A stretch of 64,000 nt of DNA, taken from Haladaptatus pallidirubidus. Its GTDB lineage: Archaea > Halobacteriota > Halobacteria > Halobacteriales > Haladaptataceae. Shown here in pieces: positions 2,048-57,961 of the stretch. The first letter of the stretch is position 1, and the number at the start of each line of letters is the position of its first letter. The DNA is taken from assembly GCF_020700235.1 (NCBI RefSeq), contig NZ_CP085307.1, forward strand, positions 248,001 to 312,000. Direction: 5' to 3'. The notes under the pieces were generated by a model, which saw nothing but the letters and a program-made list of their open reading frames with translations, did not search any database and was not told where the DNA came from. A program made the position numbers and the translations under genes.

Positions 2048-2238
2048 GTGAACAACTACCTACTAAACTTGTTTAAAGTAACACCCGTTCATGCTCAGTC
2101 CCAACTGAGCAAATTTATTTTCCAGATAATTCTCACGTACGAACGAATACCTCTAATGATAAGGTGTGTTGTTAACATACCCTACGCGAATGAAAAGCAT
2201 ATGCGAAAGTCACAAACGACGTTCTTCGAGGTATTCCG

Positions 2239-3837
2239 ATGAATATCGACCTACTGTTAAAGAACGCCCAAATCGTGGACGGGACGGGCGCACCGTGGTT
2301 CTGCGGGAGCGTAACGGTGCAGAACGGCGAAATATCGAATATCATCCGGGGCGACACGAGTGACGTAGATGCACAGAAAATGATTGATGTCAAGGGCGCA
2401 GTGGTTGCGCCCGGTTTCATCGACACTCATAGTCACTCTGACCTCCAGTTATTCGATAGCCCTTCACTTGCACCAAAGATACACCAAGGGATTACGACAG
2501 AGATTCTGGGACAGGACGGTTTTTCGATGGCGCCGATGCATCGCGACGGTGGTGCCAAAGAATGGCAACGCCACCTCTCAGGTCTCGCTGGTGACGTAAC
2601 ACTCGACTGGTCGTGGGGCGATACCGCCTCATATCTCGACGCAATTGAGGAGAACGGCGTCGCTCCGAACGTCGCAATGTTGGTGGGTCATGGCACGGTA
2701 CGATACAACGTGCTGGGGATGTCTGACCGCGCCCCTACCGAAGCAGAACTAAACAAAATGGCTGATTTGGTGACTACTGCGCTCAATGACGGTGCCATTG
2801 GCTTCTCAACTGGTCTGGTGTATTCGCCGCAGGTGAACGCCTCTACCCACGAGGTTCAGACGCTGGCCGCCCAACTTGCTCCGTACGGACGTCCATTCGT
2901 GGCGCACATTCGAAGCGAAGGGGACATGATGTGGGAAGCACTCGATGAATTCATCGATATTGGTGCCGAGGAAGACGTTCCGCTCCATCTCTCACACTAT
3001 AAGGTCATCGGAGGCGCGAAAAAGGGACACGCTGACCGCGCAAACCATCTACTTGAGTCGGCGCGCGAACGCGGCGTCGACATCACCGCCGAACAATATC
3101 CGTATCTCGCCGGTAACACGCTCCTATCAGCGGTTCTGCCACCATGGGTTCACGCCGACGGGCCAGACAGAGCGCTTGAATATCTCGCCGATGATGAGAG
3201 CCGGGAGCGTATCCGAAAGGATATCGAAGAGTGGCGTATCGATGGCTGGGAGAATCAGGGACCCCGCACCGGCTGGGAAAATATTGACGTTCGGAACCTC
3301 AACACTGACGTATGGACGGACTACGAAGGCGCAAGCGTCGCCGCTATCGCCGATGAGCGCGACCAAAACCCAGTCGAGACCGTTTGCGATCTGCTGTACG
3401 ATGAGAACCTCACACCCTCGATGATTTTACACACGCTGAATGAGAACGACGTGCGTAAAATCATGCAGTACGAGCGAGTGAGTATCGCCACGGATGGTCT
3501 GTTCGGAGCCGAGCCCCACCCGCGAACATACGGCACGTACCCCCGCGTCCTCGGACGGTACGTCCGTGAGGAGGGAGTTCTCTTACTTGAGGAGGCGATC
3601 CGAAAGATGACCTCACTGCCTGCACGAGTTATGGATCTCGACTCGAAGGGAGTAATCCGACCCGGCATGGATGCTGACCTCGTGGTGTTCGATCCCGCGT
3701 TTATCACCGATACTGCAACGTATGACCGTCCGCGACAGCATCCTCGTGGTGTCCAACACGTTATTGTTAACGGTGAGTTCGTAGTTAAGGACAGCGAGAC
3801 CACCAGCGCCACTCCTGGTGACGTAATTCGGGCATGA
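2239..3837 (+). CDS. N-acyl-D-amino-acid deacylase (amidohydrolase superfamily), copy 1
   Basis: A 532-residue member of the D-aminoacylase branch of the amidohydrolase superfamily, which hydrolyses N-acyl-D-amino acids to a D-amino acid and a carboxylate. Metal and catalytic residues are visible: H64 and H66 in GFIDTHSHSD, H223 in VAHIRSE, H250/H253 in LHLSH, and D419 in SIATDGLFG. Where classical D-aminoacylases have a zinc-bridging Cys (GNCG), this protein has GQDGFS near residue 92, a variant seen in part of the family. There is no signal peptide. A purine-rich GAGGT precedes the ATG by about 10 bases. It is convergent with a second 532-residue copy (3997-5595) and shares long, nearly identical blocks with it. 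The exact acyl substrate is unknown; dihydroorotase- or hydantoinase-like activity is an alternative. Confidence 0.88.
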   Translation: MNIDLLLKNAQIVDGTGAPWFCGSVTVQNGEISNIIRGDTSDVDAQKMIDVKGAVVAPGFIDTHSHSDLQLFDSPSLAPKIHQGITTEILGQDGFSMAPMHRDGGAKEWQRHLSGLAGDVTLDWSWGDTASYLDAIEENGVAPNVAMLVGHGTVRYNVLGMSDRAPTEAELNKMADLVTTALNDGAIGFSTGLVYSPQVNASTHEVQTLAAQLAPYGRPFVAHIRSEGDMMWEALDEFIDIGAEEDVPLHLSHYKVIGGAKKGHADRANHLLESARERGVDITAEQYPYLAGNTLLSAVLPPWVHADGPDRALEYLADDESRERIRKDIEEWRIDGWENQGPRTGWENIDVRNLNTDVWTDYEGASVAAIADERDQNPVETVCDLLYDENLTPSMILHTLNENDVRKIMQYERVSIATDGLFGAEPHPRTYGTYPRVLGRYVREEGVLLLEEAIRKMTSLPARVMDLDSKGVIRPGMDADLVVFDPAFITDTATYDRPRQHPRGVQHVIVNGEFVVKDSETTSATPGDVIRA

Positions 3838-5675: not shown

Positions 5676-5918
5676 CTACTCGTCTGCCTTCTCTAGCACT
5701 GCATTGTAGAGGACGTTCACACCAGCACGATGTCCTTCCACTCAGTGTACTCTTCTTCAACGTGGCTGATACCATCGACGCTCGGGACGAATATCATACT
5801 CGTCGGACAAATTGTGTTCAGATAGTTCGCATCATGGCCAGCACCGCTAACGAGGCGTATATACTCATCTTCTCCAACAGTTACCTGTGCTGCCTGCTCA
5901 AACTTCGACCGACGAGAC
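5676..5918 (-). pseudogene. C-terminal remnant of an M20-type carbamoylase/allantoate amidohydrolase
   Basis: Reading the minus strand gives [18 protein letters not shown] followed by [19 protein letters not shown], the hallmark C-terminal region of Zn-dependent hydantoinase/carbamoylase amidases (N-carbamoyl-L-amino-acid hydrolase, allantoate deiminase). A one-base frameshift near 5735 separates it from the expected tail [15 protein letters not shown], which ends in TAG at 5676. Nothing of the N-terminal two thirds remains; the similarity stops where the HTH_10 gene begins at 5919. It is dead both by truncation and by frameshift. It supports the idea that this island once handled carbamoyl- or acyl-amino acids. 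Confidence 0.8.
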
Positions 5919-7429: not shown

Positions 7430-8090
7430 CTTGACTGGGACTGCAATCGAGCTTTCGCTCCCTGTCGCAAATGGGAGACTCTTCCGGCATGCTGCAACGA
7501 GTGATATCCTCGATCTCCTTGCCGCCAATCCACACACCGCATTCAGTGTTCGCGACCTCCGCCGCGTGACCGACCAGAGCGCAAGTAGTGTTACGGACGC
7601 TGTCGATCTCCTCGACGAGACAGATCTCATCACGATTACATACGATGGCAATCGGAAACTCGTTCAAATCAACCGAAAGCGACTCTCTCATCCTGATGAC
7701 CCATTGCTCCAAATTCCACAGACAGAGTTTCGTGATCCTGTGCGAACGATTGTTGATCGAATAACGCAGGAACTCGCCGATGTCAGAGGAATTGTTCTCT
7801 TCGGCAGTGTCGCTCGAGGCGAGGCTGATCGACGAAGCGACATCGACTGCTTCGTCCTCGTTGACGACGAACAAGCGCGTGCACAGCAGACGGCCCACGA
7901 GATTGCCTCGGAACTGAGCGAGCAACGATTTGACGGCGACCGGTTCAAATTCCAGGTACTCGTGGAGTCGACGGACACAGCACCCCGATATGGCGACCGC
8001 CTGCGCGATATCTTTGCGTCCAGTCTCACTCTCGTTGATTCCGAGGTGCTTCAGGCGCTCAAATCGGAGGTGCTCACGAATGGACGGTAG
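7410..8090 (+). CDS. Nucleotidyltransferase with N-terminal winged helix (MNT-type antitoxin)
   Basis: A 226-residue protein. Residues about 28-90 form a winged helix (SDILDLLAANPHTAFSVRDL and onward). Residues 125-210 are a minimal nucleotidyltransferase domain with the DNA polymerase-beta signature GSVARGEADRRSDID at 132-146 (G132, S133, D144, D146). In the known HEPN-MNT type VII toxin-antitoxin systems the MNT protein neutralises the HEPN RNase by AMPylation or similar modification. The next gene, overlapping by 11 bases at 8080, is a HEPN protein, which fits that pairing. Two tandem palindromes cover the start codon and point to self-regulation. All catalytic acidic residues needed for the fold signature are present, so this partner appears intact. 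Confidence 0.85.
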   Translation: MVAKSDHLTGTAIELSLPVANGRLFRHAATSDILDLLAANPHTAFSVRDLRRVTDQSASSVTDAVDLLDETDLITITYDGNRKLVQINRKRLSHPDDPLLQIPQTEFRDPVRTIVDRITQELADVRGIVLFGSVARGEADRRSDIDCFVLVDDEQARAQQTAHEIASELSEQRFDGDRFKFQVLVESTDTAPRYGDRLRDIFASSLTLVDSEVLQALKSEVLTNGR

Positions 8091-8577
8091 CTACGTCGAA
8101 GACGCCCTCGACACAGCAGAACAGGCCTTTCAGGATACGCGTGGACAATTGAGTGAAACGGATTTGGATGTGTCCGACGAAGCGCTCGTTCAGCTCCGGA
8201 AGGCCTGCCGGTTACTCGAAGCTGCGCGAACACTTCGTTCGCAAAACGGCTATTACACCGTTGTCATCGAAGCGTCCTTCGTCGCCATCGAACGGAGTAT
8301 CCAGTTCTATCTCCTCCATCGAGGACAAGCGGCAGGTGAAGATCTTTGACACGAGCATACCGCTGTGTACCAACGTGGCGCAGAAGTCAACCTCTTCAGC
8401 GATTCGTTTGCAGCACGCTTGATCCAGTTGTGGCAGCAAAATCGGGCAGAAGTCTACTATCGTGAAACGGTTGCCAGTGCAGAACAGGCTGATGCAATGC
8501 TCCACTTGGCAGAGGATCTCCACCAGTATCTCCGAGAATTTGCGTCGTTACAGCACGAATGCGTCTGTTCGACGTAG
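8080..8577 (+). pseudogene. HEPN-domain toxin gene interrupted by an in-frame TGA
   Basis: From the ATG at 8080 (overlapping the end of the nucleotidyltransferase gene) the frame encodes an all-helical HEPN-type protein: MDGSYVEDALDTAEQAFQDT, then LVQLRKACRLLEAARTL and YYTVVIEASFVAIERSIQFY. A TGA at codon 90 (8347-8349) stops it, yet the same frame continues without gap to 8577, with a helical, protein-like sequence and a C-terminal R152-x6-H159 motif (REFASLQH). Rx4-6H is the catalytic motif of HEPN RNases, so the truncated product would lack its active site. A single C-to-T change from CGA would explain the stop. Restart at a downstream codon (GTG at about 8362) is possible but would lack the N-terminal helices. 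It is probably a dead toxin. Confidence 0.75.
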
Positions 8578-8759
8578 TCTATCGACGAATCAACGCATCG
8601 TTTTGAACTTCTCGGGGCGCAACGCATGCTATGGGATGAACACATCTCATCTATATGCCTTCAGTAGCTGATCCCAGAGAGACTGTCCCTAATCCACGAC
8701 TCCACCAATCCAAACTCTCTTTACCGATTATCTGTAAGCTGTAAACAACATCAACACTA

Positions 8760-9341
8760 ATGTCACACACTGCATCCCACGCCAATGGCGATGTGATTCG
8801 AGATTTCCTCTCGATCGCAAATCTCCTCGAAGAGCCACGATTAGCCCAACTATACGCATATCTCTCTCAACAGGGTCCAGCGACCGTCCAGGAACTCATG
8901 GACGCATTGGACCTCCCGCAAGGGACAGCTTACACATACGTGAAGCGGCTGGCTGATACGGGCGTTATCGAAGCGACCGACGACGAGCACCCCCGAACAT
9001 ACGTTGCTCATCCAATCGATCTCACGATCTCGGCTGGAGATGGAACGCGTGAGTATACGATCACCCCGATGCTGGTTGACGCTGTGAGCCGCCAATCTAC
9101 CAACGACGATATCGAGACATACATCACCCGCCACGGCATCGCCGGTCTAGCGACAGCACTCACCTATACAGTTGCATGTGAGCGTGGTGAGGTAACCCAC
9201 CGATTGATGGCACGCGATTTGGACATCTCTCCCCTTGCTGCAGAGATCATTCTCCAGGCTCTCCGTCCTGTCGTTCGCGATTACATCGACATCGAAGAAC
9301 CCGGTGCAGCGGGACCAAATCTTGGGCCAGACGACGAGTAA
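8760..9341 (+). CDS. Helix-turn-helix protein of the haloarchaeal DUF7437 type
   Basis: A 193-residue protein with a winged helix at residues about 20-80: LEEPRLAQLYAYLSQQGPAT, VQELMDALDLPQGTAYTYVK and RLADTGVIEA, an ArsR/TrmB-like arrangement. The C-terminal half (residues 85-193) is the alpha-helical part seen in a family common in haloarchaea, which I recall as DUF7437. In other haloarchaea this gene is followed by a small PIN-like gene; here the follower (9365) is broken. A role as antitoxin or repressor of that partner is likely by context. The ATG is preceded by CAACACTAA and no obvious ribosome site, as is common for leaderless haloarchaeal mRNAs. Confidence 0.72.
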   Translation: MSHTASHANGDVIRDFLSIANLLEEPRLAQLYAYLSQQGPATVQELMDALDLPQGTAYTYVKRLADTGVIEATDDEHPRTYVAHPIDLTISAGDGTREYTITPMLVDAVSRQSTNDDIETYITRHGIAGLATALTYTVACERGEVTHRLMARDLDISPLAAEIILQALRPVVRDYIDIEEPGAAGPNLGPDDE

Positions 9342-9364
9342 ACTGTGGAGACATCCGACGACAC

Positions 9365-9680
9365 GTGATCGACATTCATATCGCCGATTCGGGGATGTTC
9401 ATTGCTCTCGGTTAACCACAAACAATCGTTATCAGCACGTCAGAGCGTTTGCCCGCCAGAACGAGATTGTGTTTCTCCTTCCAGAGCGAGTCTGTGAAAA
9501 GATCGTGGTCCCGCTGCAGACACTGAGGAACCACCAATTGAGACCGCAATTGAAGAGGGATGGGCACACGTCGCTGATCCACTCGGGTATACAATTTCAA
9601 TCGTATCTCAAGCAATGGATGGCGTCGAGCGATACATCGTGAATGCTGATGCTCGACCCGCTGATGAACTCTCTCGGTGA
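9365..9680 (+). pseudogene. Frameshifted PIN-like (putative RNase toxin) gene
   Basis: The GTG at 9365 opens a frame VIDIHIADSGMFIALG, a PIN-like N-terminus with the first acidic residues. It stops at TAA 9413. Two further frames continue the protein: YQHVRAFARQNEIVFLLPER, then EEPPIETAIEEGWAHVADPL and YTISIVSQAMDGVERYIVNA. At least two frameshifts therefore break the gene, and the expected C-terminal part with later acidic residues is not found. The gene sits 23 bases downstream of the DUF7437-type HTH gene, the usual partner position. It cannot yield a functional nuclease. Confidence 0.72.
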
Positions 9681-9863
9681 GGACAAAGAAAAACAATTCA
9701 GTGGAGAACAGCCTACTGTTCGAATTAAAGCAAATACAGCCACGAGAACGACAGATGAGTGACCCGGCGCGTCGTTTTTGAAAAGCACCATCTTTTCGAT
9801 TCAGTAGACAACGGTCGAAATTATGAGTGTTGTTTCATTAGACATTGGGTTGAAGCAGTATCT

Positions 9864-10307
9864 ATGGACGAAACGGGGGTAGTATCTTACAAACACGTTT
9901 TGGTGCCGACGGATGGGAGCAAAGCGGCAAAACGCGCAACCGAACAAGCAGTAGAACTCGTAAAGGAGAGCAATGGAACAGTACACGCACTGTACGTGAT
10001 GGACATGGGGGACGCAGCTTTCGTCGCAGTCCCGAGCGACATCAAGGAAACACGGCAGCGACTAGAGAAAAAGGGACGCAAATTTGTAAACGAAGTAGAA
10101 GAAAAAGCCGAAGAAAGCGGAGTCGACTGTGTTGCCGTCATAAAATCCGGAATCCCGGAAGAAGAGATAGTTGAGTATGTCCATGAGCATGATGTCGATC
10201 TAGTAGTGATGGGAAGACGGGGACGGTCAGATCCTGACAAGCCACTCATTGGTTCGACGACGAAGCGTGTCCTTGGCCTATCTGACGTTCCAGTTCATGT
10301 GGTCTGA
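9864..10307 (+). CDS. Universal stress protein (UspA fold)
   Basis: A 147-residue single-domain universal stress protein, cytoplasmic. It starts VSYKHVLVPTDGSKAAKRA and ends with the ATP-binding signature GRRGRSDPDKPLIGST (G-x2-G-x9-G-S/T pattern), followed by VLGLSDVPVHVV, so it belongs to the nucleotide-binding type. I chose the ATG at 9864 (MDETG), because the longer frame from 9759 adds 35 residues that do not fit the family. It stands alone between the broken PIN-like gene and a nucleotidyltransferase fragment. A second, broken stress-protein gene lies at 17926. Confidence 0.88.
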   Translation: MDETGVVSYKHVLVPTDGSKAAKRATEQAVELVKESNGTVHALYVMDMGDAAFVAVPSDIKETRQRLEKKGRKFVNEVEEKAEESGVDCVAVIKSGIPEEEIVEYVHEHDVDLVVMGRRGRSDPDKPLIGSTTKRVLGLSDVPVHVV

Positions 10308-10346
10308 CATTCAGGATACTTCCAACTTGTGATTAACCTTGATTAG

Positions 10347-10481
10347 AAGTACGTGATCGAGGAGAGAGTTGACGATCTTCGGGATCTGGCGTACGATGTG
10401 CAACTCGACTACTCTGTAGTTGTATCCGTTCACGTCCAAACAACTGAACGATTCGCCGAGCGAAAGAATCATCCATTCATC
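10347..10481 (+). pseudogene. Fragment of a minimal nucleotidyltransferase
   Basis: The frame reads KYVIEERVDDLRDLAYDVQL, then DYSVVVSVHVQTTERFAE and NHPFI, which matches the C-terminal portion of haloarchaeal MNT nucleotidyltransferases (the part after the catalytic GSx..DxD site). The catalytic half is absent, a TAG precedes the fragment, and beyond 10481 the frame runs into unrelated sequence. It is a truncated relic, the third toxin-antitoxin-like trace within 3 kb. Confidence 0.6.
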
Positions 10482-11690
10482 ACCGTGACGTTATCCGCAT
10501 GGCCCATTCTCTTCCCGTTGGGTAGCGAGACTGCCCCTAACACGTGGTACTGTAGTTAGTATATTATTCTAACCACGAAAACAGACGTGAAGCAGCTACT
10601 GACGTTACACTGTTCCATGGATTCGTACAGAAGACGTGGAGAGTTAATTTGGCGTCACCATGAACGCGTCCCACGTCTATTAGTTACCTACAGTTGACAT
10701 CGAAGGCCGATAACTAACCTTCGACATTCTCCAATCGTCCTTGCTCTATTGTAAATATTGGGGCCAAATCTCGTGGTTATTACCATTACTATACAGGTTC
10801 GTTTACACAGTATACTAGAAGAGTACTGTATAAGGAAATAGACCATATACTGACGTTACACTGTATCTAATCTATGAAACAGAAGACATGGGGGGAAATT
10901 CATACCCGTGCATGTCACAGAACGTCGAAGTTACCGCCCTCCAAGGCAATTTTCTTCGACAATGTCTATAGCAACTGTCGCCGTTTAAAAATAACGGTTT
11001 CCACTGGTGTTACACTGTATATCGATTACAGGAGGGAGACGTGTGGAGTCTTGTGTTGAAGACTCCATTCGAGAGGAAACAGACGGTGCTGTTTCCATAA
11101 CTTGGGTGAGTCAGCCATCACATCGAACCACGTCTCATGACACCTCGTGACTGTCGAAGGTGATAACTACCTCCGACATTTTTCTATCGAATCTACACTT
11201 TATAAATATTGTGGCTAAATTTTTGTAATTATTGCCGCATCTACGTTTGTTCACACAGTATATGGAAAAAACACTGTATACTGACGTTATCCCATGTAAG
11301 AAAATAGACTATATACTGCTGTACCGACATAGCGCAATTCATTGGAACGGATGATGACGGAAGCAGCGTTTGGTTCCATCAGCAACGTCCCAATGGATAA
11401 GCCTGCGGTACACACCCAACTACAGATCCACATCCGTGATTCATCGAACGTAGGTGTTGGCGCACCTACAAACCACATCTACCTTTTTTATTGGTTTGAG
11501 ACGGCTACCTCGGACTCGGGCACCCATGCTCAACTAAGAATGGCCAGATCAACTTTGCTAATGAGTAAAGTAGTCCATCATAGTCGTTTTTCCACTTACT
11601 GTCCTACGTAGCACCAGATTCATCGGACACGTGGTGTACTCACATGACGACTGATCGTAAGCTACTCACGGTAGATACCTTTGCCTTTGC
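10482..11690. other. 1.2-kb gene-free stretch holding a duplicated noncoding block
   Basis: Apart from the repeats at 10598-11325 I see no gene here. Frames of up to 89 codons occur around 11342-11611 but have no recognised family, and base composition is A/T-rich and noncoding in feel. Confidence 0.5.
10598..11325. repeat. Duplicated noncoding block with recurring ACTGACGTTACACTGT motif
   Basis: The 16-base motif ACTGACGTTACACTGT occurs at 10598-10613 and 10849-10864, with a two-mismatch form at 11003-11018 and a partial form at 11280. Between these marks the two blocks (10598-10864 and 11003-11325) match in order: a TCGAAGG-TGATAACTA-CTTCGACATT-like segment, a TAAATATTG-GGC-AAAT segment, a GTTTACACAGTATA segment with an imperfect inverted copy (ACTGTATA), and TAAGGAAATAGACCATATACTG against TAAGAAAATAGACTATATACTG. 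The blocks are diverged direct repeats. They could be a mobile element pair without genes, an RNA-encoding repeat or a binding-site array. Confidence 0.7.
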
Positions 11691-12058: not shown

Positions 12059-13690
12059 TCAATCCGCTGCAGTTATTGGGCCGAGCGGGCCACCGTAGAG
12101 GCCACCACCACCGCTGCCGTCGTAGACGCGAATCGCGAGCACGTTCTCGCCGCCGAAGTTAATGTTCTCCGGCTGAACCGTGTAGCGCCGGGTCTGCGAC
12201 CAAGCGGTCTCGTAACCGTTCTCCGGGAACGTTCCGGTTTGCCCAATTTTCGCCCCGTTGAGAAACGTCTCGTCCACGTCATCGATCTTTCCGACCGGGA
12301 TTTCAAGTGCGTGCCCTTTCCACTCCGCTGGCACGGTGAAGTGCTTACGGAACCACCCGTAAACCGGATTCTCGGTGTGATCAGAGTGGTCTTCCCAGTT
12401 AGCGGGTAACGTGACCGTTTCCCACTCACTGTCGTCGAGACCCGGGGCTTTCCACGACAAATTATCACTGCGATGGAACAACCACTTGCCAGCGAGCGAA
12501 ATCTGTGGCACCGTCAGCAAGCGCGGTGGGAGGTCGTCTACGGTCACCTCGAAGATTCCGGCGACCCCAATGTTCCGCTCGAAGGAGACGCGGGTTTTCG
12601 TTCCGGGTTGCAGCGAGACCGTCTCCGTTGCGACCACCTCGCCGTCGATTTTCAGCGGAACGTTGATTTCCGCCGGATCGCCGCTCGTGTTTCGAACGAC
12701 CGCGCTCACGTCGAGCTGCCCGGTGTCTACGTCAAAATCGACCGTAAGATCGCCAAACGTATCCACGCTTGCGAACGCGTACGGTAGATTGCGACGCGAG
12801 AGTTCCATCGGTGACTCCTCATCAGTTATCGGACGGAGACCAACCACGAACGAGAACGGGCCGTCTGGAACGACTCGGTACTCAGGGAGTGTCTGGATCG
12901 GCGTTCCGCCCACGCCAGTGACACTATGGTCGAGATTGAGCGTTACGGTGTCCCCGTCCTCAATTTGGTAATTAAACAGCGCCCGGTCGAGGTTTTCAGG
13001 AGATATATGGTGGGCGCTGACGTTCAGACTCGGATGCCCGAACGCGGCGAGGCCGCTGCTCCTACTTGTGAGGGTCGCCCACTGGACGTCCGTCTTGTTC
13101 CCGTAGTCCTGCGGGCGGACGTAGGGGATGTACTGTTCTTCAACCGTGCCGCTGTGGACGCCGACTTTCGTCCCGGTCTTCCGGTCGGGATACGTCTCCT
13201 GCGGCCCGCGCCCGTACCAGTTGAACTGCCGGAGTGAATCCTGAAGCCTGAGTTGAACGCCCATGCGACCGATCCAGCTCGAAATCGCCTGCTTTAGGGC
13301 GCCGTTCGGTGTCGCGCGGACTCCCAGCAGGATGTCGCCGGTTCCGAGCACGTGATAGAGGTAGTTAGTCGCGAACGACGCGTCCTTACCGGGAGCGGAG
13401 ACTGTTGTCTCGAATTGGATGCGCGTCACCTGGTCGGCGATCGACTCGACCGAGACCGACTCGACCGTGTGTTCGAGTTGATCGAGCCCAGCATCACGCC
13501 ACTCCTCGACCTCGGCTGACCCCCAGTCGACGTTCTCGTTCGAGATTGGCGTCCGCCAGACATTCAACCGGGGGCCGCTCGCGAGCAGTTCCTCCTCGTC
13601 GCATTTCATCGACGTGAGCCTCCCCTTCACCCTGTCGAACGTGTACTCGAATCCTGATCCACTGACCGTAATTGTGTCTGATGGGCTCAT
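12059..13690 (-). CDS. Beta-galactosidase small-chain domain with C-terminal jelly-roll domain
   Basis: A 543-residue protein. Residues about 5-290 match the Bgal_small_N domain (domain 5 of LacZ), with FEYTFDRVKGRLTSMKCDEE, the RLNVWRTPISNENVDWG loop, QFNWYGRGPQETYPDRKTGT and a C-terminal YRVVPDGPFSFVVGLRPI. Then comes a CARDB-like beta segment (about 305-395) and a GH2-type sugar-binding jelly roll (about 400-543; SLAGKWLFHRSDN, YGWFRKHFTVPAEW). It has no catalytic glutamates of its own, and no signal peptide. It follows the large chain by 46 bases on the same strand, so the two should act together as a heteromeric enzyme, as LacL/LacM do in lactobacilli. How it leaves the cell is unclear, since only the large chain has a Tat signal. 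Confidence 0.8.
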   Translation of the reverse strand: MSPSDTITVSGSGFEYTFDRVKGRLTSMKCDEEELLASGPRLNVWRTPISNENVDWGSAEVEEWRDAGLDQLEHTVESVSVESIADQVTRIQFETTVSAPGKDASFATNYLYHVLGTGDILLGVRATPNGALKQAISSWIGRMGVQLRLQDSLRQFNWYGRGPQETYPDRKTGTKVGVHSGTVEEQYIPYVRPQDYGNKTDVQWATLTSRSSGLAAFGHPSLNVSAHHISPENLDRALFNYQIEDGDTVTLNLDHSVTGVGGTPIQTLPEYRVVPDGPFSFVVGLRPITDEESPMELSRRNLPYAFASVDTFGDLTVDFDVDTGQLDVSAVVRNTSGDPAEINVPLKIDGEVVATETVSLQPGTKTRVSFERNIGVAGIFEVTVDDLPPRLLTVPQISLAGKWLFHRSDNLSWKAPGLDDSEWETVTLPANWEDHSDHTENPVYGWFRKHFTVPAEWKGHALEIPVGKIDDVDETFLNGAKIGQTGTFPENGYETAWSQTRRYTVQPENINFGGENVLAIRVYDGSGGGGLYGGPLGPITAAD

Positions 13691-13736
13691 GGCTTCCTCC
13701 GTGTGCTGTATGTGTCGTTCATCGTCAGATGTGATG

Positions 13737-16700
13737 TCATTCGTTCACCGAGATAGTCGACATTTCTGAGACTAGTTCAAGTGTGGGAGTTGGGACGTCG
13801 AACGGCACTTCGAACTGCTCGAAGGCAACCTCATGGCCCACATCGGCATACCATGTATCCTCGGCGAGGTGGAAACTGACGACCAGCCAGTAGTCCGCGC
13901 CGGGTTCGAATTCTGGTTGGTCGAAGGGGATTTCGACCGTGGTCGTGTCGTTTGGTTCGAGTGCGACATCAAGTGCCCCCTGCTGGAGGACGTCACCACC
14001 TTCGCACAGCTCCCAGTGCACGTCGAGTGCAGAGAGATCCGTGAAGTTGTAGTGATTCGTGACCTCCACGAGGCCTGCGGTAAGGTTGGCCCCGCGCAAC
14101 CGAATTGGCTGATGAGCTTTCTTTAACTGCCAGAGTTCGGGTTGGGGCACACGGTCTGCGTCGACAAGACCATTACAACAGAATGGATCGACGCCGTACG
14201 AACGGAATGTTCCGTCGGTTTCGAACACCTCGAAGTCGAGCCAGAGCACGGTACTCTCATCAGGTCTAGAACGATTTAATCGGAGTTCATCGGCCACAAA
14301 GCCACGGTCGTGGATGGCTGCCCGTCGATATCGGGCATTCGAGAGCCAGCCGTCCCAGTTTGCCCGGTGTTTGTCTGCATTCCGGCCGACGTTGACCGGC
14401 TGTGGGTTATGATTGATGCTGCCGTCGTGTGGGGTGGATGCTAACTGCTTCCCGTCCACGTAGAGCTGTAATTCGCTCCCGGTGTGGACGCCGACGACGT
14501 GATGCCAGTTCCCGTACCAATCATCGGGGACAGTCGATTCGACGGTAACCCATTCCTCTTCGGGGTCGTAAATGAAGAACTGGAGTGTCGACTCGTCGCT
14601 CATTTTCAACCCGTACTGGTGATCACCCTTCGTAAGGAAAGCGTCCGAGCCAGTCCACGGCTGCCGGGGCTGAACCTCAACCTCGAGCGTTAGCCCGGGT
14701 TCGGTGATGTCAAGGCTCGGGTCGCGGTAGAATTCAATCCAGTCGTCGAGTCCTGAAAGCTCGATTGCGGGGTCTCCCGCATCCGTGTTGACAACCGTAG
14801 GTTCACCGTGGAAAACACCGTCGTTGCCGTATTCAGTGGCATCGGGTGTGATAGTGTAGTCCTCGTCAAGTCGCTGGTTCACCCAGTCCCAGATAAAACC
14901 GCCCTGCAACTGGTCGTGTTCTTCAATGACCTCCCAGAACCGCTCAACGAGACCGAGGCTGTTGCCCATCGCGTGGTTGTACTCGCCCATGACAGCCGGG
15001 CGTTGCTCATCTTCATCCTCGGCAATGTCGACGAGGTCGGACGGGCTGACATACCGTGGTCCGATGACGTCTGCGTAGGGAGCAACGCCGCCGTTGTTCG
15101 CCTGATGGTATAAGAACCTCGTCGGATCGACGCCCGCACCCGCATCGCCGTCGCCGTCCACATCGCCACCCTCGATGTATTCGGCCATGTGAAAGTGTGC
15201 TGGGCCGAGACCGGCTTCATTCCCCGTACTCCACATGAAAATGCTGGCCTGGTTCTTCCACTGCTGAACCATTCGCCTGAAGCGATTCATAAATTGAGTG
15301 TGGAACGCCGGATACTCATTGACGAGGTCAGGGTTCTGATGGGTCTCGGCGTTGACTTCGTCGCACACGTAGAAGCCAAATTCGTCCGCGAACTCGTAGA
15401 ACTCGGGGCCGCGCGGATAATGCGAGTTCCGAAGTGCGTTGACGTTGAATTGCTTCAGACGCTCGAACTCCTCGCGTCGCAGGTTTTCGGCCATGGTGCG
15501 GCCGAATTTGGGATGGTGTTCGTGGAGATTGACGCCCTTGAAGTTGACCGGTTCACCGTTAACGTGGATCTGACCGTCAATAATCTCGTATTTGCGAAAC
15601 CCGAATTTTGCGAGCTGGGCTTCGGTGGCCGACTGCGATCCAGACTGGCGAAGTTCGAACCCGACGCGATACAAATTCGGATATTCTGCAGACCATTTCG
15701 CCGGCGAGGCGACGTCGATCGAGAAGGAGACGCCAGCGCTATCGTCCGCCGGCACGTCGACGGTTTTCGACGCCGTCTTCACGGGCTGATAGTCGGGGTC
15801 AAAGAGGTAGGTTTGAAGCTCGTACGTGTCCGCGCTGTCGCCGTAATTCGCGATTTCGGCGTCCACGTGGAGCGCCCCGTTCTTGTAGTTGCTGTCGAGA
15901 CTGGGTTGGAGGAAGTAATCGCGGAGGTGAGCGTTCGGCGTTGAGTAAAGTGAGACGTCGCGAAAGATTCCCGCAAAATGCCACATATCCTGGTTCTCCA
16001 AGTAGCTTCCGTCGGACCATCGAAAGACCTGTACGCCGATTTCGTTCGCGCCGGGCTGGAGATTGTCAGTTACGTCGAACTCCGCAGCCGTCATCGATCC
16101 TTTGTCGAAGCCGACATATTCGCCGTTAATCCACACGAAGTACGCGGATTTCACGCCGTCGAAGCGGAGGAACGTCCGGCGGCCTTCCGTCCAGCTATTT
16201 GGCACCGTGAACGTCCGTTGGTACGTTCCGACAGGGTTGATGTCGTTGGGGACGTTCGGCGGGTCGTACGGGTAGAGGTCGAGAGTGATGTTGCGGTACA
16301 TCGCGTGGCCGAAGCCATCAGCCTGCCAGACTCGGGGAACCGTGACGGTGTCCCACAAATCCGTTCCGTCGAATTCGCTGGGCGCGTTCGCTGGATTAAG
16401 CGCCCAGTGGAAGTTCCAGTCACCGTTCAGTGACTCGAAATGCGGGGATTGTCGCCACCGTTGGAGCGGTGATTTGTTCACTCGGTCTTGGTTGAGCGCC
16501 GATTTAACCGAGGGATACGGAATCGTGGGGACATGCCCAGGTTCCTGGTTCTCTTCAACCAACTCGGGGTTCTCAATGTACTTGTCAAGGGGAACGTCGC
16601 CGGGCGTCATAGATTGGATCACCGAAGTCGTTGCTGATGCCGTCCTCTGGTCGCTCAGTCCGGGGAGGAGTGCAATACTACCGGTCGCCAGGAACGTCCG

Positions 16701-16763
16701 ACGCAACACGTTGAGCGTCGAGCGTCTTGTGGAATCGTCAGTGGTCGGATTAGTTTCACTCAT
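13737..16763 (-). CDS. GH2 beta-galactosidase large chain, Tat-exported, with inserted LamG domain
   Basis: A 1008-residue GH2 enzyme. A twin-arginine signal (LRRTFLATGSIALLPGL) sits at residues 20-36. The sugar-binding domain (about 110-275), immunoglobulin-like domain (about 280-395) and TIM barrel follow. The acid/base is E516 in WSTGNEAGLG and the nucleophile E594 in VMGEYNHAMGNS. Between WDWVNQ (625-630) and CCNGLVDADR (about 862) lies a concanavalin-like LamG insert (about 660-846) with WHHVVGVHTGSELQLYVDG. Domain 4 ends the chain; domain 5 is encoded by the next gene (13690-12059). It should hydrolyse beta-galactosides outside the cell. The upstream leader holds an A/T-rich box (TTATAAATA on the minus strand near 16855). 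Substrate may be a polysaccharide rather than lactose. Confidence 0.88.
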   Translation of the reverse strand: MSETNPTTDDSTRRSTLNVLRRTFLATGSIALLPGLSDQRTASATTSVIQSMTPGDVPLDKYIENPELVEENQEPGHVPTIPYPSVKSALNQDRVNKSPLQRWRQSPHFESLNGDWNFHWALNPANAPSEFDGTDLWDTVTVPRVWQADGFGHAMYRNITLDLYPYDPPNVPNDINPVGTYQRTFTVPNSWTEGRRTFLRFDGVKSAYFVWINGEYVGFDKGSMTAAEFDVTDNLQPGANEIGVQVFRWSDGSYLENQDMWHFAGIFRDVSLYSTPNAHLRDYFLQPSLDSNYKNGALHVDAEIANYGDSADTYELQTYLFDPDYQPVKTASKTVDVPADDSAGVSFSIDVASPAKWSAEYPNLYRVGFELRQSGSQSATEAQLAKFGFRKYEIIDGQIHVNGEPVNFKGVNLHEHHPKFGRTMAENLRREEFERLKQFNVNALRNSHYPRGPEFYEFADEFGFYVCDEVNAETHQNPDLVNEYPAFHTQFMNRFRRMVQQWKNQASIFMWSTGNEAGLGPAHFHMAEYIEGGDVDGDGDAGAGVDPTRFLYHQANNGGVAPYADVIGPRYVSPSDLVDIAEDEDEQRPAVMGEYNHAMGNSLGLVERFWEVIEEHDQLQGGFIWDWVNQRLDEDYTITPDATEYGNDGVFHGEPTVVNTDAGDPAIELSGLDDWIEFYRDPSLDITEPGLTLEVEVQPRQPWTGSDAFLTKGDHQYGLKMSDESTLQFFIYDPEEEWVTVESTVPDDWYGNWHHVVGVHTGSELQLYVDGKQLASTPHDGSINHNPQPVNVGRNADKHRANWDGWLSNARYRRAAIHDRGFVADELRLNRSRPDESTVLWLDFEVFETDGTFRSYGVDPFCCNGLVDADRVPQPELWQLKKAHQPIRLRGANLTAGLVEVTNHYNFTDLSALDVHWELCEGGDVLQQGALDVALEPNDTTTVEIPFDQPEFEPGADYWLVVSFHLAEDTWYADVGHEVAFEQFEVPFDVPTPTLELVSEMSTISVNE

Positions 16764-23380: not shown

Positions 23381-23519
23381 AGGACTGCTGGGATCTTCGT
23401 GTCTAACTGTTTCCCTTAGTGAGACTCCCCGAGTCCAAAACAGTCAAGGTTTGTAGAAATAAAGTTGGTGAAAGGAATATTATAGTGACGATTCTTTGAA
23501 CTACTCCGCAAACAGTTCT

Positions 23520-23543
23520 ATGATAATAGTTGACTATTATCAT
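23520..23543. promoter_or_regulatory. Perfect 24-base palindrome upstream of the CUT2 binding-protein gene
   Basis: ATGATAATAG (23520-23529) and CTATTATCAT (23534-23543) are exact inverted copies with a TTGA centre. The element lies 24 bases before the likely start at 23568 and downstream of an A/T box (AATATTATA near 23478), a position suited to a repressor that blocks the sugar transporter operon. Confidence 0.7.
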
Positions 23544-23567
23544 TCCGTAGGCGGTAGTTCGTCCTGT

Positions 23568-24788
23568 ATGGTGTCACAAAACAAAGAGAGGTCGTACATA
23601 GGTCGACGCTCGTACTTAAGAGGCGTTGGTGGTGTGACCGCTCTGGGAATGGCGGGGCTTTCGGGGTACACGAGCCAGGACGGATCGCTCACAGTCGGTC
23701 TCTCGACACATTTCACGTCCGGAGCGTGGGTAACCGCGGTTGTCGAAGCGACACAATTCTACGCGCAAGACCAGGGATTCAACTACAACCTGTTCACCAC
23801 CGGCGGTGAGAGTCAGAAACAGATTACTGACATCCGTCAGATGGTCAACCAGAATTACGACGGAATCGTCCTGATTCCATTTAATTCGCAGGCAATTGGA
23901 TCAGTCGTTGAGGAAGCGACGAATGCTGGCGTCCCCGTTTTCACCGTCGATATTGATGCTGCAACTGGTGCTGACAAGATGCACTTCTCGTGGGATGACG
24001 AAGCCGCGACACGCCGTGCCGGTGAGATGTTAGTCGAGAATCTCCGACAACAGAAACCGAACCAAGACCAGTACCAAGTACTCGAAGTACGCGCACCACC
24101 AGGCCGCGATATTGCTCGTCTCCGACACGAGCCGTTCGTGAACCTCATAGAACAAACTGATGACGTCATTGTTGCCGGGACGGTCGTCGGTGACTGGGTA
24201 CGGGAGACGTCCAAACAGCGTACCCCGGAGTGGATCAACGCCAACCAACCACCGGACGCGATCTACTCGGCGAACTTCCTGATGAGTCTTGGCGCTCTGT
24301 CGGCGCTCCAGGAGATGGATTTAGCCGTTCCGCGTGGAGAGGATGGTCACATCGTGATGACGCAACTCGATGGGTCACAAAACACTCACGAGATGATCAT
24401 GGAGGGATTCATTGATGGAGCCGTCGACCAGCCGAACTACTACTACGGCCCACTCGCGCTGGCGTATCTCGAACGCTTCGTCAACCAGGGTGAATCGGCA
24501 CTCCCGTCGCAAGGGTCGACTGTGACCTCGACGAAAGAGCCAGTCACTGGAACAGGCAATCAAACTACAACGACCGCAAACGGTGGGGGCGGGCAGACGG
24601 TCACCATTGAACCTGCTCAGCACCGCGGTGTCGAACTCTGGCAAGCGCCGATTTGGTCACCAGCAACCATCAGACAAGCGTTTAACCACCGCCAGTTCGT
24701 CACGAGTCACGTCGAAATCACCGAGGAAAACGCAGACGCACCGTATTTGTGGGGGAACATCTGGGGTCCAGACGCGTCGATCCAGTGA
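23568..24788 (+). CDS. Sugar ABC transporter substrate-binding protein (RbsB-like), Tat-exported
   Basis: A 406-residue periplasmic-binding-protein type I (RbsB/CUT2-like). The chosen start MVSQNKERSYIGRRSYLRG gives a twin-arginine signal (RRSYLRG, residues 13-19) and a hydrophobic stretch; a longer frame from 23496 would place the upstream palindrome inside the gene and is less likely. The mature part shows the alternating fold: TVGLSTHFTSGAWVTAVVEA, IVLIPFNSQAIGSVVEEATN, GVPVFTVDIDAA. A Thr/Gly-rich linker (about residues 318-345) precedes the last 60 residues, which is unusual. It heads the operon SBP-permease-ATPase-aldehyde dehydrogenase. It should capture a monosaccharide outside the cell; which one is unknown. 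Confidence 0.85.
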   Translation: MVSQNKERSYIGRRSYLRGVGGVTALGMAGLSGYTSQDGSLTVGLSTHFTSGAWVTAVVEATQFYAQDQGFNYNLFTTGGESQKQITDIRQMVNQNYDGIVLIPFNSQAIGSVVEEATNAGVPVFTVDIDAATGADKMHFSWDDEAATRRAGEMLVENLRQQKPNQDQYQVLEVRAPPGRDIARLRHEPFVNLIEQTDDVIVAGTVVGDWVRETSKQRTPEWINANQPPDAIYSANFLMSLGALSALQEMDLAVPRGEDGHIVMTQLDGSQNTHEMIMEGFIDGAVDQPNYYYGPLALAYLERFVNQGESALPSQGSTVTSTKEPVTGTGNQTTTTANGGGGQTVTIEPAQHRGVELWQAPIWSPATIRQAFNHRQFVTSHVEITEENADAPYLWGNIWGPDASIQ

Positions 24789-24818
24789 CGACCCCCTCCG
24801 ATTCGAAGATCCATACTC

Positions 24819-25829
24819 ATGAGTACGATCAACGTCGTTAGACGCTCGGTAGATATCGACGAGTTCCTACTGCGGGTGCTCGAGAACATGATTTGGCCGA
24901 TACTGCTGGTGATGTCGTTAGCGATTTGGCTGGCCGTTCCGCGGACGTTCACGAATTTTCGTTCGTTCGAGTTCATTCTCCATGGTTCGGTCGGACTCGG
25001 CTTCGTTGCACTCGCGGAAGCAGTTTGTCTCATCTCCGGTCACTTCGACCTGTCCGTCGGGTCGATCGCCGGGTTCTCTGCGATGTTGGCGGGACTCATT
25101 GTCTCGGCAAACAAGTGGGCTCTCGTCTCTGATCCGTTCGTTGGTGTGCTCGTCATTCTTACAATCGGGCTGGCCGTCGGGCTTATGAACGGGGTAATGG
25201 TTGGGAAGGTGGGTATCAATCCATTCCTCCAGACGCTCGCGTTCTTGATCATTCTCCAAGGCGCAAAGCTGAGCTTGAGTACGATTACCGTCACCGGCTT
25301 GCCGGAGGGGTACGTCGAAATCGGGAATTCCCCCGAGATTTCGGTCGGCCTCCTCGTGCTCACATTCGTCCTCGTCGGGTTCGTGATGAAATACACCACG
25401 TTCGGGCAAGCCATCTACGTCGTCGGGAGTGATAAGGAGGCGGCGCGGGCAGTCGGTATCAACACCGAATGGATGATAATCGCGGTATACGGTATCAGTG
25501 GCGTGCTCTCCGCTGCTGGTGGGTTGATGCTCACCGGTTTCATCAGTGTCGTCCCGCCGACAATCGGTGACGAACTTGTCTTCCCAGCGTTCGCTGCTGC
25601 CGTCATCGGTGGTGTCAGTCTCTTCGGTGGACGTGGCAAGGTCACCGGTGCACTTGGTGGAGTCCTACTCCTCGGAGTGATTCAGGCTGCACTCAATATC
25701 AGCGGCACCCCGCCTGAACAGGTGACGCTGGTAAACGGCCTCGTCCTCTTCGGTGCGATTTTGCTGTACAGCTCGCGGCGTCGGCTGCGCGAACGAATCC
25801 TTTCACGGCAGGTGAAACCACGTGACTAA
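24819..25829 (+). CDS. Sugar ABC transporter permease (RbsC-like)
   Basis: A 336-residue permease of the BPD_transp_2 (RbsC/LivH) family with about nine membrane helices. It shows the typical GHFDLSVGSIAGFSAMLAG loop and GLMNGVMVGKVGINPFLQTL, the family's conserved segment contacting the ATPase, and the C-terminal GGVSLFGGRGKVTGALGGVL. It forms the membrane channel of a CUT2-type transporter with the binding protein 30 bases upstream; its end overlaps the ATPase start by 8 bases, indicating translational coupling. Confidence 0.9.
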   Translation: MSTINVVRRSVDIDEFLLRVLENMIWPILLVMSLAIWLAVPRTFTNFRSFEFILHGSVGLGFVALAEAVCLISGHFDLSVGSIAGFSAMLAGLIVSANKWALVSDPFVGVLVILTIGLAVGLMNGVMVGKVGINPFLQTLAFLIILQGAKLSLSTITVTGLPEGYVEIGNSPEISVGLLVLTFVLVGFVMKYTTFGQAIYVVGSDKEAARAVGINTEWMIIAVYGISGVLSAAGGLMLTGFISVVPPTIGDELVFPAFAAAVIGGVSLFGGRGKVTGALGGVLLLGVIQAALNISGTPPEQVTLVNGLVLFGAILLYSSRRRLRERILSRQVKPRD

Positions 25830-26619
25830 GGACGATAGTCTCGAAACGACCACAACGGATGTGCGCGACGACCAGATAGAGAAAGCCCGCTTCGAGGACG
25901 TTACCAAACAGTTCGGACGGGTGATCGCCGTCGAAGATGTGACGCTGCCGATTTACGAGAACGAAATCCTCGCGGTCGTTGGAGATAATGGCGCAGGAAA
26001 ATCGACACTGATGAACATGCTTTCGGGCGTCTACCAGCCGACTGCCGGTCGTGTCATCTTTGACGGCGAGCAAGTGCAATTTTCGAACCCAAGTGAGGCT
26101 CGCGAGCGGGGTATCGAGACTGTTTATCAGGATCTGGCATTAATGGACGATCTCGACATCGCGACGAACATCCACATCGGGAAGTTTCCGAAACGACTCG
26201 ATATCGGACCGGTCGACGTCATCGACTGGCGCCAAACGTACGAGAATACGACCAAGATACTGGAGTTCCTGCAGCAAGATCTTCGCCCGACCACAGAGGT
26301 GGCGTTCCTCTCCGGTGGCCAACGCCAACTCGTCGCAGTGGGGCGGTCGCTTTTGTTTGACCCGGAAGTCCTCATCCTTGACGAACCGACGAGTGCCCTC
26401 TCCGTCGCAGGAGCCGAGTTGGTTCATGACACGATGCATCGGCTGAAAGCGGAGGGGCACACGCAAATCGTCGTAAGTCACAATTTAGAGGACGTATTCA
26501 ATCTCGCAGATCGCATTGCCGTGATGTATCGTGGACAGTTGGTAGCGACCGTCAACCCAGAACAGACGGACAAGGAGACGGTGACTGACTTGCTTACCAG
26601 CGGAACTCCGTCGTCGTAG
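25822..26619 (+). CDS. Sugar ABC transporter ATP-binding protein (single-domain RbsA-like)
   Basis: A 265-residue ABC ATPase starting at a GTG (25822) inside the permease gene. Walker A is GDNGAGKST, the signature LSGGQRQ, Walker B VLILDEPTSAL and the switch His appears in VVSHNLEDV. Unlike bacterial RbsA, which has two ATPase domains in one chain, it carries one, so it should act as a homodimer. It energises uptake by the preceding permease and binding protein. The next gene is an aldehyde dehydrogenase with its own probable TATA box near 26655. Confidence 0.9.
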   Translation: MTKDDSLETTTTDVRDDQIEKARFEDVTKQFGRVIAVEDVTLPIYENEILAVVGDNGAGKSTLMNMLSGVYQPTAGRVIFDGEQVQFSNPSEARERGIETVYQDLALMDDLDIATNIHIGKFPKRLDIGPVDVIDWRQTYENTTKILEFLQQDLRPTTEVAFLSGGQRQLVAVGRSLLFDPEVLILDEPTSALSVAGAELVHDTMHRLKAEGHTQIVVSHNLEDVFNLADRIAVMYRGQLVATVNPEQTDKETVTDLLTSGTPSS

Positions 26620-26689
26620 GCTCGTTGTGGATTGTGCCCTATTTCTCCAGAGGGCTTATATCTGGCAACGAGTGATGGTAACACGAACC

Positions 26690-28213
26690 ATGACTGATGA
26701 AGGGAGCGTGTCATCGACCGATTTGGAAGACGGATCGATGTCGTTTATGATGTACATCGCTGGTGAACCGACAGTAAGCGAAAGCGGTGAGACCTACACA
26801 GTCACGAATCCTGCAACTGGCAAGGCCCTCGGCGAAATGCCTGCCGGGACGAGAACGGACGCCCAACGAGCAATCGATGCGGCACGAGAGGTCAAAGAAG
26901 ACCTTGAGTTCATGACGGCGTTCGAACGCGCTGAACTCTGTCACGAACTTGCCGACACCATCGAATCGAGCCGTGACTCGCTCGCCGAATGGCTGACAAG
27001 AGATCAAGGAAAGCCACTCACTGAAGCGAAGGTGGAGGTCGACCTCTGTGCAAAGGAGTTCCGTAACGCGGCTGAGGACGTCAAACGCGATGAAACAGAC
27101 GTGATCCCATCAGAAGACTCCGGGAAGCACATCTACACCATCCGCAAACCACACGGCGTCCTTGGCGTCATCACCCCGTGGAACTTCCCGTTGAACATCC
27201 CAGCAGAGTATATCGCACCTGGCCTTGCCGCTGGCAACAGTATCGTCTGGGTGCCGGCGCCAACCACCTCAGTCATTGCGATCAAACTGTTGGAGGTGTT
27301 CTCGGACACGTCATTGCCTGATGGCGCACTCAATCTCGTCACTGGCGAAGGGCCGGTCGTTGGGAACGAACTCGTCGTCAACGACGGTACTGATGTGATC
27401 GGATTCACAGGGAGTCCCGAGACGGGCGAAGCGATTGCACGAGACGCTGGAACGAAACCGACGCTTCTCGAACTCGGGGGGAATGGCCCCGTCATAATCC
27501 TCGATGACGCCAACCTCGACGCAGCGGTCGAATGCACATCCTCTGGGTGTTTCAACAACACTGGCCAAATTTGTTCAGCAAGCGAGCGTATCCTCGTCCA
27601 CGAAGATGTCCACGATGAATTTGTCGACCACATTGCCGACCACGCACAACAGTTGACACTCGGTGACCCCACAGCAGAAGAAACCGATCTCGGGCCGCTC
27701 AACAACGATGGTGTTGCCGACAAGATGGATCACCACATCGAAGACGCGACCGAACAGGGTGCGACGGTCGTCACAGGAGGTGGTCGGGCGGACAATATGC
27801 CGACGGATCGCTACTACCAGCCGACGGTTCTCGACGATGTAACGACTGAGATGACGGTGAATTGGGAGGAGTCGTTCGGGCCAATTGCACCGATCATCAC
27901 GTTCAGTAGCTACGACGAAGCAATTGCGATTGCCAACGAAATCGACCTCGGACTCACATCGAGTGTGTTCACCAGTAACATCGAACTAATGTACTACTTC
28001 GCTGAGCGTGTTGAGACCGGTATTGTCAACATCAACGATAGCAGTGCATACTGGGAGATTCACACACCGTTCGGGGGGTACAGTGGCAAAAACAGTGGCA
28101 ATGGTCGAATCGGTGGGAAGTACTCGCTTGAACAACTCTCGCAAGTCAAGACGATTGCCGTCGATTACGAGAACGCCGCGTCACCACTCAACCGGGAGAA
28201 TGAGAGAGAATAG
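26690..28213 (+). CDS. NAD(P)-dependent aldehyde dehydrogenase
   Basis: A 507-residue aldehyde dehydrogenase oxidising an aldehyde to the acid. Motifs: VITPWNFPLNIPA, FTGSPETGEAIA, general base E261 in LLELGGNGP and the nucleophile C295 in NNTGQICSAS. At the cofactor site the usual Lys (VWKPA- or VVKPS-like) is replaced: WVPAPTTS at 187-194, which may change cofactor preference. The ATG at 26690 is preceded by a TATA-like CTTATAT near 26655, fitting a leaderless or short-leader transcript; an upstream in-frame start at 26627 is less likely. In context it could be a 2,5-dioxopentanoate, glycolaldehyde or lactaldehyde dehydrogenase in sugar use; substrate not deducible. Confidence 0.87.
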   Translation: MTDEGSVSSTDLEDGSMSFMMYIAGEPTVSESGETYTVTNPATGKALGEMPAGTRTDAQRAIDAAREVKEDLEFMTAFERAELCHELADTIESSRDSLAEWLTRDQGKPLTEAKVEVDLCAKEFRNAAEDVKRDETDVIPSEDSGKHIYTIRKPHGVLGVITPWNFPLNIPAEYIAPGLAAGNSIVWVPAPTTSVIAIKLLEVFSDTSLPDGALNLVTGEGPVVGNELVVNDGTDVIGFTGSPETGEAIARDAGTKPTLLELGGNGPVIILDDANLDAAVECTSSGCFNNTGQICSASERILVHEDVHDEFVDHIADHAQQLTLGDPTAEETDLGPLNNDGVADKMDHHIEDATEQGATVVTGGGRADNMPTDRYYQPTVLDDVTTEMTVNWEESFGPIAPIITFSSYDEAIAIANEIDLGLTSSVFTSNIELMYYFAERVETGIVNINDSSAYWEIHTPFGGYSGKNSGNGRIGGKYSLEQLSQVKTIAVDYENAASPLNRENERE

Positions 28214-50963: not shown

Positions 50964-51054
50964 GGGCAATTTTCATCCTGAAACCACATCAAGATACTCT
51001 TTGAATCTAACTAAGCGTACACCTGGAATTATAATCCATGATTGACTTCTTCCG

Positions 51055-57925: not shown

Positions 57926-57961
57926 CGTTTGTATTCGGCAAGCCACCTAATATTAAGTTTG

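What the first reader, a model, noticed from the sequence alone, without database searches (positions are those of the whole stretch)
12059..16763. Split beta-galactosidase in which only the large chain has an export signal
The large chain (domains 1-4, catalytic E516 and E594) has a Tat signal, while domain 5 is encoded as a separate 543-residue protein without any signal, fused to an additional GH2-type jelly roll. LacZ needs domain 5 to complete its active site, so the small chain must meet the large one. Folding together in the cytoplasm and co-export through Tat (hitchhiking) would fit, since Tat moves folded complexes.
Basis: inference. Interest (0 to 1): 0.6.

Follow-up and report, generated by a model that had tools for sequence, protein, structure and literature searches.

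The report
Two-piece exported beta-galactosidase in haloarchaea
Some salt-loving archaea make a LacZ-like sugar-cutting enzyme as two separate proteins of which only the larger carries an export tag, so the smaller one probably leaves the cell by riding out, already folded, on its partner.

Summary
Two adjacent minus-strand genes encode a LacZ-type GH2 enzyme cut between domains 4 and 5: a 1008-aa chain with a Tat-type signal and all catalytic residues, and a 543-aa chain (domain 5, Ig-like linker, jelly roll) without any signal. It is no frameshift: nine distinct loci (Haladaptatus, Halocatena, Natrialbaceae) share the split; four public records annotate two CDS. The large chain has a Tat-type signal in eight of nine (the ninth is disturbed by an assembly artefact), the small chain in none. 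Split genes form one clade. They share a LamG insert with the 17 Tat-signalled single-chain relatives examined, which 8 of 9 signal-less relatives lack; the small chain's jelly roll otherwise occurs in Tat-type genes (7 of 7 places, two of them broken genes). Co-export of the folded pair is the best explanation; it is inferred, not shown. Each half has precedents (lactobacillal LacLM; Tat hitchhiking of redox enzymes, proposed also for haloarchaeal NarGH); I found no printed report of the combination in a glycoside hydrolase. One correction: the LacZ domain-5 residue W999 is absent from all these enzymes, so the catalytic need for domain 5 is open.

The parts
13737..16763 (-). Large chain, 1008 aa: GH2 domains 1, 2, TIM barrel and 4 with a LamG insert
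   Evidence: 83% (Halocatena) to about 59-62% (Natrialbaceae) identical orthologues
16623..16763 (-). N-terminal Tat-type signal (residues 1-47; RR at 21-22, then an uncharged hydrophobic stretch; no lipobox Cys seen)
   Evidence: simple RR + hydrophobicity rule, not SignalP/TatFind; max 15-residue Kyte-Doolittle 1.38
15936..16439 (-). Domain 1 (Glyco_hydro_2_N, residues 109-276)
14820..15587 (-). TIM barrel (residues 393-648) with E516 and E594
14331..14720 (-). LamG/ConA-like insert (residues 682-811) between the W568-type and F601-type motifs
   Evidence: in 8 of 8 split, 17 of 17 Tat single-chain and 1 of 9 signal-less relatives
13803..14069 (-). LacZ domain 4 (residues 899-987); the chain ends at residue 1008
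13691..13736 (-). 46-bp gap between the genes; GGAGG just upstream of the small-chain ATG; frames not continuous
12059..13690 (-). Small chain, 543 aa, no export signal found
12845..13663 (-). LacZ domain 5 (Bgal_small_N, residues 10-282), loop GVGGTP in place of the W999 loop
12506..12793 (-). Ig-like (CARDB-like) linker, about residues 300-395; the name is my reading, no Pfam hit
   Evidence: many weak matches to this stretch in large haloarchaeal ORFs
12071..12502 (-). GH2/acetylesterase-type jelly roll, residues 397-540

Best explanation
This is a two-subunit, LacZ-type GH2 beta-galactosidase-like enzyme made by cutting an exported single-chain enzyme between domains 4 and 5. The two chains are made from adjacent genes, fold and assemble in the cytoplasm, and leave as one folded complex through Tat on the large chain's signal (hitchhiking). 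Outside, the enzyme releases sugars that a neighbouring ABC importer takes up in several relatives. Shown from sequence: the split, the one-sided signal, its conservation, the pairing, the intact catalytic residues, purifying selection on both chains. Inferred: assembly before export, co-translocation, galactosidase activity and substrate.
For: (1) Nine distinct split loci; Tat-type signal on the large chain in 8 of 9 (in G186/L036 it sits in another frame beside an N/adapter assembly artefact), on the small chain in 0 of 9. (2) Pairing: of 391 Halobacteria genomes, the 6 with a split-type large chain (59% identity or more) are the same 6 with the small chain. (3) The 15 non-split places found by the large chain alone all have domain 5 on the same contig stretch in a long ORF. 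(4) The split enzymes have the architecture of the exported kind: LamG insert in 8 of 8 split, 17 of 17 Tat single-chain and 1 of 9 signal-less relatives; their domain 5 is closer to the exported relatives (mean 46% identity) than to the signal-less ones (38%). (5) The small chain's jelly roll lies elsewhere at 7 places: 5 in ORFs with a Tat-type signal, 2 in broken genes with a Tat-bearing ORF just upstream. (6) All 14 checked large-chain active-site positions are kept in 8 of 8 split enzymes; dN/dS of the small chain 0.14-0.29. (7) Split = one clade in the full tree (SH-aLRT 100) and in the domain-5 tree (99/94). (8) TatC is present in this genome. (9) Combined length, 1551 aa, lies within the range of the 17 single-chain Tat relatives, 1350-1734 aa. 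(10) Next to sugar ABC importers and a Gfo/Idh/MocA oxidoreductase in H. salinisoli and Natrialbaceae, in the latter also GH3 with CBM6. (11) Haloarchaeal NarGH is proposed to move the same way (PMC8301774, passages).
Against: No localisation or activity data. Tat signals were called by a simple rule. W999 is missing, so catalytic need for domain 5 is not shown. Positions conserved in single-chain relatives are kept slightly less in the split domain 5 (93%) than in the other GH2 domains (96-99%). The single-chain relatives were picked from a domain-5 search and not all were fetched. The window itself lacks the importer next to the pair. Trees place the split clade beside, not clearly inside, the Tat single-chain group, and the root is unknown. 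LacLM shows that such a split also exists in enzymes that are not exported.
Confidence: 0.72

Rival explanations
1. The large chain is exported and works alone; the small chain stays in the cytoplasm and does something else or is a relic.
For: The small chain has no signal; W999 is absent, so the active site may not need domain 5; slightly lower retention of conserved domain-5 positions.
Against: Pairing in 6 of 6 genomes with no orphans and domain 5 behind all 15 non-split large-chain relatives, adjacency in 9 of 9 loci, purifying selection on the small chain, tail module otherwise in Tat-type genes.
Confidence: 0.13
2. The small chain leaves on its own by an unrecognised signal and meets the large chain outside.
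For: The tail is of an exported type; a simple signal rule can miss unusual signals.
Against: No RR motif with a hydrophobic stretch in 8 of 8 tested and no hydrophobic N-terminus in 9 of 9 (max 15-residue hydropathy 0.63 or less against 1.2-2.1 for the large chains); in-frame stops shortly upstream.
Confidence: 0.07
3. The enzyme is a cytoplasmic LacLM-like heterodimer and the Tat-like N-terminus is not used.
For: LacLM has a comparable split and lactose hydrolysis there is intracellular (PMC6412629, passages).
Against: The Tat-type N-terminus is kept across 59-62% identical large chains; LamG architecture of the exported group.
Confidence: 0.05
4. Sequencing frameshift or a decaying gene.
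For: In Halocatena the two frames are continuous across one stop; a related single-chain gene in G395 is really broken into three ORFs.
Against: Nine loci, gaps of 12 to 118 bp in different frames, dN/dS well below 1, annotation as two CDS in four public records.
Confidence: 0.02

Closest known systems
LacLM heterodimeric GH2 beta-galactosidases of lactic acid bacteria
   Same: Two adjacent genes, a catalytic large chain and a small chain (LacL 628 aa, LacM 318 aa; PMC6412629 passages); that LacM corresponds to domain 5 is recalled.
   Different: Genes overlap and lactose hydrolysis is described as intracellular. Here: Tat-type signal on the large chain, LamG insert, domain 4 on the large chain, jelly-roll tail on the small chain. 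Whether LacL holds domain 4 was not tested.
Single-chain LacZ-type GH2 (best PDB matches Thermotoga maritima 6s6z/6sd0 and Bacteroides 3bga; E. coli LacZ)
   Same: Domains 1-5 and catalytic residues.
   Different: Split, with export signal and LamG insert; no W999 equivalent (also not seen in Bacteroides 3bga/3dec in the alignments).
Tat hitchhiker complexes (E. coli HybOC, formate dehydrogenase, PaoABC; haloarchaeal NarGH)
   Same: Only one subunit carries the Tat signal (PMC4273604, PMC10924467, PMC8301774; passages).
   Different: Those are cofactor-containing redox enzymes; this is a glycoside hydrolase.
Tat-signalled single-chain haloarchaeal GH2 enzymes with a LamG insert (e.g. Halocatena salina, Halostagnicola larsenii)
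   Same: Same domains 1-5, LamG insert, Tat-type signal.
   Different: One chain of 1350-1734 aa; not split.

Membership tests
GH2, LacZ type | Domains 1, 2, TIM barrel, 4 and 5 present | tested here: met
   over two chains
GH2, LacZ type | Catalytic acid/base and nucleophile Glu and further active-site residues | tested here: met
   8 of 8 split enzymes at 14 positions; E. coli numbering recalled
GH2, LacZ type | Domain-5 Trp (W999) at the active site | tested here: not met
   no Trp in the loop in all 34 haloarchaeal sequences; not universal in LacZ relatives either (3bga, 3dec)
GH2, LacZ type | Beta-galactosidase activity | not testable with these tools
   needs an enzyme assay
LacLM-type heterodimer | Small (domain-5) chain encoded by a separate adjacent gene | tested here: met
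LacLM-type heterodimer | Both chains form one complex | not testable with these tools
   pairing 6 of 6 is indirect
LacLM-type heterodimer | Intracellular enzyme without export signal | tested here: not met
   Tat-type signal on the large chain
Tat hitchhiker complex | Tat signal on one subunit only | tested here: met
   large 8 of 9 plus 1 artefact, small 0 of 9; simple rule, no trained predictor
Tat hitchhiker complex | Co-translocation that depends on the partner's signal | not testable with these tools
   needs fractionation of mutants

The most novel reading that the evidence does not exclude
A cofactor-free glycoside hydrolase that reaches the outside by Tat hitchhiking: a natural fission turned domain 5 into an obligate passenger, so that Tat would export only completed enzyme, and a second binding module (the jelly roll) is brought in on the passenger chain.
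Probability: 0.55. Interest if true: 0.65.

Novelty: new variant of a known kind. Interest (0 to 1): 0.52.

Why it matters
The Tat hitchhikers in the papers I saw are redox enzymes, in which cofactor loading is the usual reason for folded co-export. A split LacZ-type enzyme would show that hitchhiking also serves plain hydrolases, and in an assayable form: activity on either side of the membrane would directly report assembly and co-export. It would also mean that signal-peptide surveys of haloarchaeal secretomes miss passengers of this sort.

Tried and rejected
Frameshift or assembly error: rejected (nine loci, different gap lengths and frames). Hidden signal on the small chain from an upstream start: rejected, in-frame stops within 42 codons upstream and no hydrophobic segment. 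Fusion by readthrough: only Halocatena has continuous frames across its single stop; not general. A second split in G395: rejected, it is a frameshifted single-chain gene in three pieces. Structure of the small chain: AlphaFold with a three-sequence alignment gave mean pLDDT 31.6 (earlier collecting searches were still pending); discarded, no fold search run. Paper searches on omega-complementation of LacZ and on LacLM 'both subunits' gave nothing usable. A peptide-pattern search of the genome collection found only two relatives. Searches for a hitchhiking glycoside hydrolase or an exported split beta-galactosidase gave no relevant paper (one search gave two papers, passages of one seen).

Rows left out before counts: the tree and alignment hold 8 split loci (L113 not included; L084 and L052/L053 left out as duplicates) and 26 single-chain relatives. 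Left out were the broken L080, GH2 ORFs without domain 5 (in L040, L048, L049) and tail-only proteins (L081, L082, L086-L089, L095). Not all domain-5 places listed were fetched.

Full report
What is there. The window comes from a haloarchaeon of the genus that holds Haladaptatus salinisoli (G000, 6.27 Mb in 7 contigs; closest named relative the H. salinisoli plasmid, 90% over the small chain). Two minus-strand ORFs lie head to tail: large, 13737-16763, 1008 aa, and small, 12059-13690, 543 aa, with 46 bp between them and a GGAGG just before the small ATG. Pfam puts GH2 domains 1, 2, TIM barrel and LacZ_4 on the large chain, with a Laminin_G_3 domain inserted at 682-811, and Bgal_small_N (domain 5) plus a jelly roll on the small chain. 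PDB sequence matches of both chains are LacZ-type beta-galactosidases, best Thermotoga maritima LacZ for the large chain and Bacteroides 3bga for domain 5.

The split is old and conserved. In 391 Halobacteria genomes the full-length small chain occurs in 6; the other relatives that cover domain 5 at E below 1e-32 lie in ORFs of 1040 aa or more. Searches of the window's genus (9 genomes), of the genus of G192 (6), of the Halocatena genus (7) and of the Natrialbaceae family (125) added G394 (H. salinisoli), G397 (18 kb identical to G277, Halocatena marina) and G411 (Natrinema sp. SYSU A 869). The plasmid collection added Haloterrigena salifodinae (97.7% and 99.1% identical to G192). That makes nine distinct loci. 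In the four with public annotation that I viewed the pair is annotated as two CDS. Gaps are 12 to 118 bp and differ in frame. Large-chain orthologues at 59% identity or more occur in exactly the same six of 391 genomes. dN/dS over seven pairs is 0.10-0.23 (large) and 0.14-0.29 (small). Split enzymes form one clade in a tree of 34 rows (SH-aLRT 100) and in a domain-5 tree (99/94), with the same main division (Haladaptatus/Halocatena against Natrialbaceae).

Signals. With a simple rule (RR followed by an uncharged hydrophobic stretch), seven of eight distinct split large chains tested have a Tat-type signal. The eighth, G186, has it in another frame upstream of an N/adapter artefact. The ninth, H. 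salifodinae, has it by eye. No small chain has one (8 of 8; L113 by hydropathy); their N-terminal hydropathy peaks are 0.63 or less against 1.2-2.1 for the large chains, and in-frame stops lie within 42 codons upstream. TatC is present in the genome.

Why co-export is likely. First, relatives found by the large chain alone: all 15 non-split places have domain 5 in a long ORF at the same place, so an enzyme of this group without domain 5 was not seen. Second, of the 26 single-chain relatives in the tree (picked from the domain-5 searches, not all places fetched), 17 have a Tat-type signal and 9 none found. The LamG insert is in 8 of 8 split enzymes, 17 of 17 Tat single chains and 1 of 9 signal-less ones (L049, a long-branch row), and the split domain 5 resembles the Tat group (mean 46%) more than the signal-less group (38%). 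So the split enzyme belongs architecturally to the exported kind. Third, the small chain's jelly roll (E 1e-15 or better) lies at 13 places in 391 genomes: 6 split small chains and 7 others. Five of the 7 are in ORFs with a Tat-type signal (L087, L086, L089 by rule; L111 and L002 by eye); two are in broken genes with a Tat-bearing ORF just upstream (L112, L095; by eye). Two more in the genus (L081, L082) are Tat-type proteins too, annotated as GH97 in public records. Fourth, the combined 1551 aa are within the size of single-chain Tat relatives, 1350-1734 aa. Fifth, in H. salinisoli and in the Natrialbaceae loci viewed the pair sits beside a Gfo/Idh/MocA oxidoreductase and a sugar ABC importer, in Natrialbaceae also GH3 with CBM6; this suits an enzyme that feeds an importer from outside. 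The window itself lacks this arrangement next to the pair.

What does not fit or is not shown. In all 34 haloarchaeal sequences aligned that loop lacks Trp, mostly reading GVGGTP; Bacteroides 3bga and 3dec show none there either. All 14 large-chain positions checked are kept in 8 of 8. Catalytic need for the small chain is thus open, although the constant presence of domain 5 argues that the fold needs it. Conserved positions of single-chain relatives are kept a little less in the split domain 5 (93%) than in the other GH2 domains (96-99%). The trees do not place the split clade clearly inside the Tat single-chain group, and the root is unknown, so fission of an exported ancestor is inferred from architecture. 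A structure prediction of the small chain failed (pLDDT 31.6).

Known parallels. LacLM of lactic acid bacteria is a heterodimer of 628 and 318 aa, and lactose hydrolysis is described as intracellular (PMC6412629, passages). Tat hitchhiking is established for hydrogenases, formate dehydrogenases and PaoABC; the signal-bearing PaoA stayed inside when a partner was missing (PMC10924467 and PMC4273604, passages). It is proposed for haloarchaeal NarGH from the same one-sided signal (PMC8301774, passages). Haloarchaea are predicted to send 39-55% of their secreted proteins by Tat (PMC2945643, passages). I found no paper on a hitchhiking glycoside hydrolase or a split exported beta-galactosidase (searches; open-access library only, listings seen).

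Verdict. Observation confirmed; interpretation supported with one correction; a new variant that joins two known kinds, and directly testable by fractionation in Haloferax volcanii.

Noticed in passing
L002 (G000:C1:3517948-3521568), ORF 1480-2886 (-): A 468-aa Tat-type protein joins what looks like a GH97 N-terminal domain directly to the same jelly-roll tail; relatives of 1208-1222 aa (L081, L082, L089) look like full GH97 proteins, so this copy seems to have lost its catalytic part.
   Followed up: partly
L092, L093, L094: In these single-chain Tat-type relatives domain 5 itself is interrupted by a second LamG-like insert at about residue 100 of domain 5.
   Followed up: partly
L049:2954-6715 (-): The only signal-less single-chain relative with the LamG insert; no Tat motif was seen just upstream in any frame.
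   Followed up: partly
L080 (G395), 7493-11665: A Tat-type single-chain GH2 gene broken into three ORFs.
   Followed up: no
L036 (G186), about 5700-5900 and 8700-8800: Stretches with N and a typical adapter-derived peptide in the large-chain gene: an assembly artefact that shifts the frame of the Tat signal and alters the C-terminus.
   Followed up: yes
window 23496-28213 and 50076-62627: Sugar-related genes (a ribose-type ABC importer, later a second ABC importer, an enolase-superfamily dehydratase and a protein that looks like GH127); names are by eye, no family search was run.
   Followed up: no
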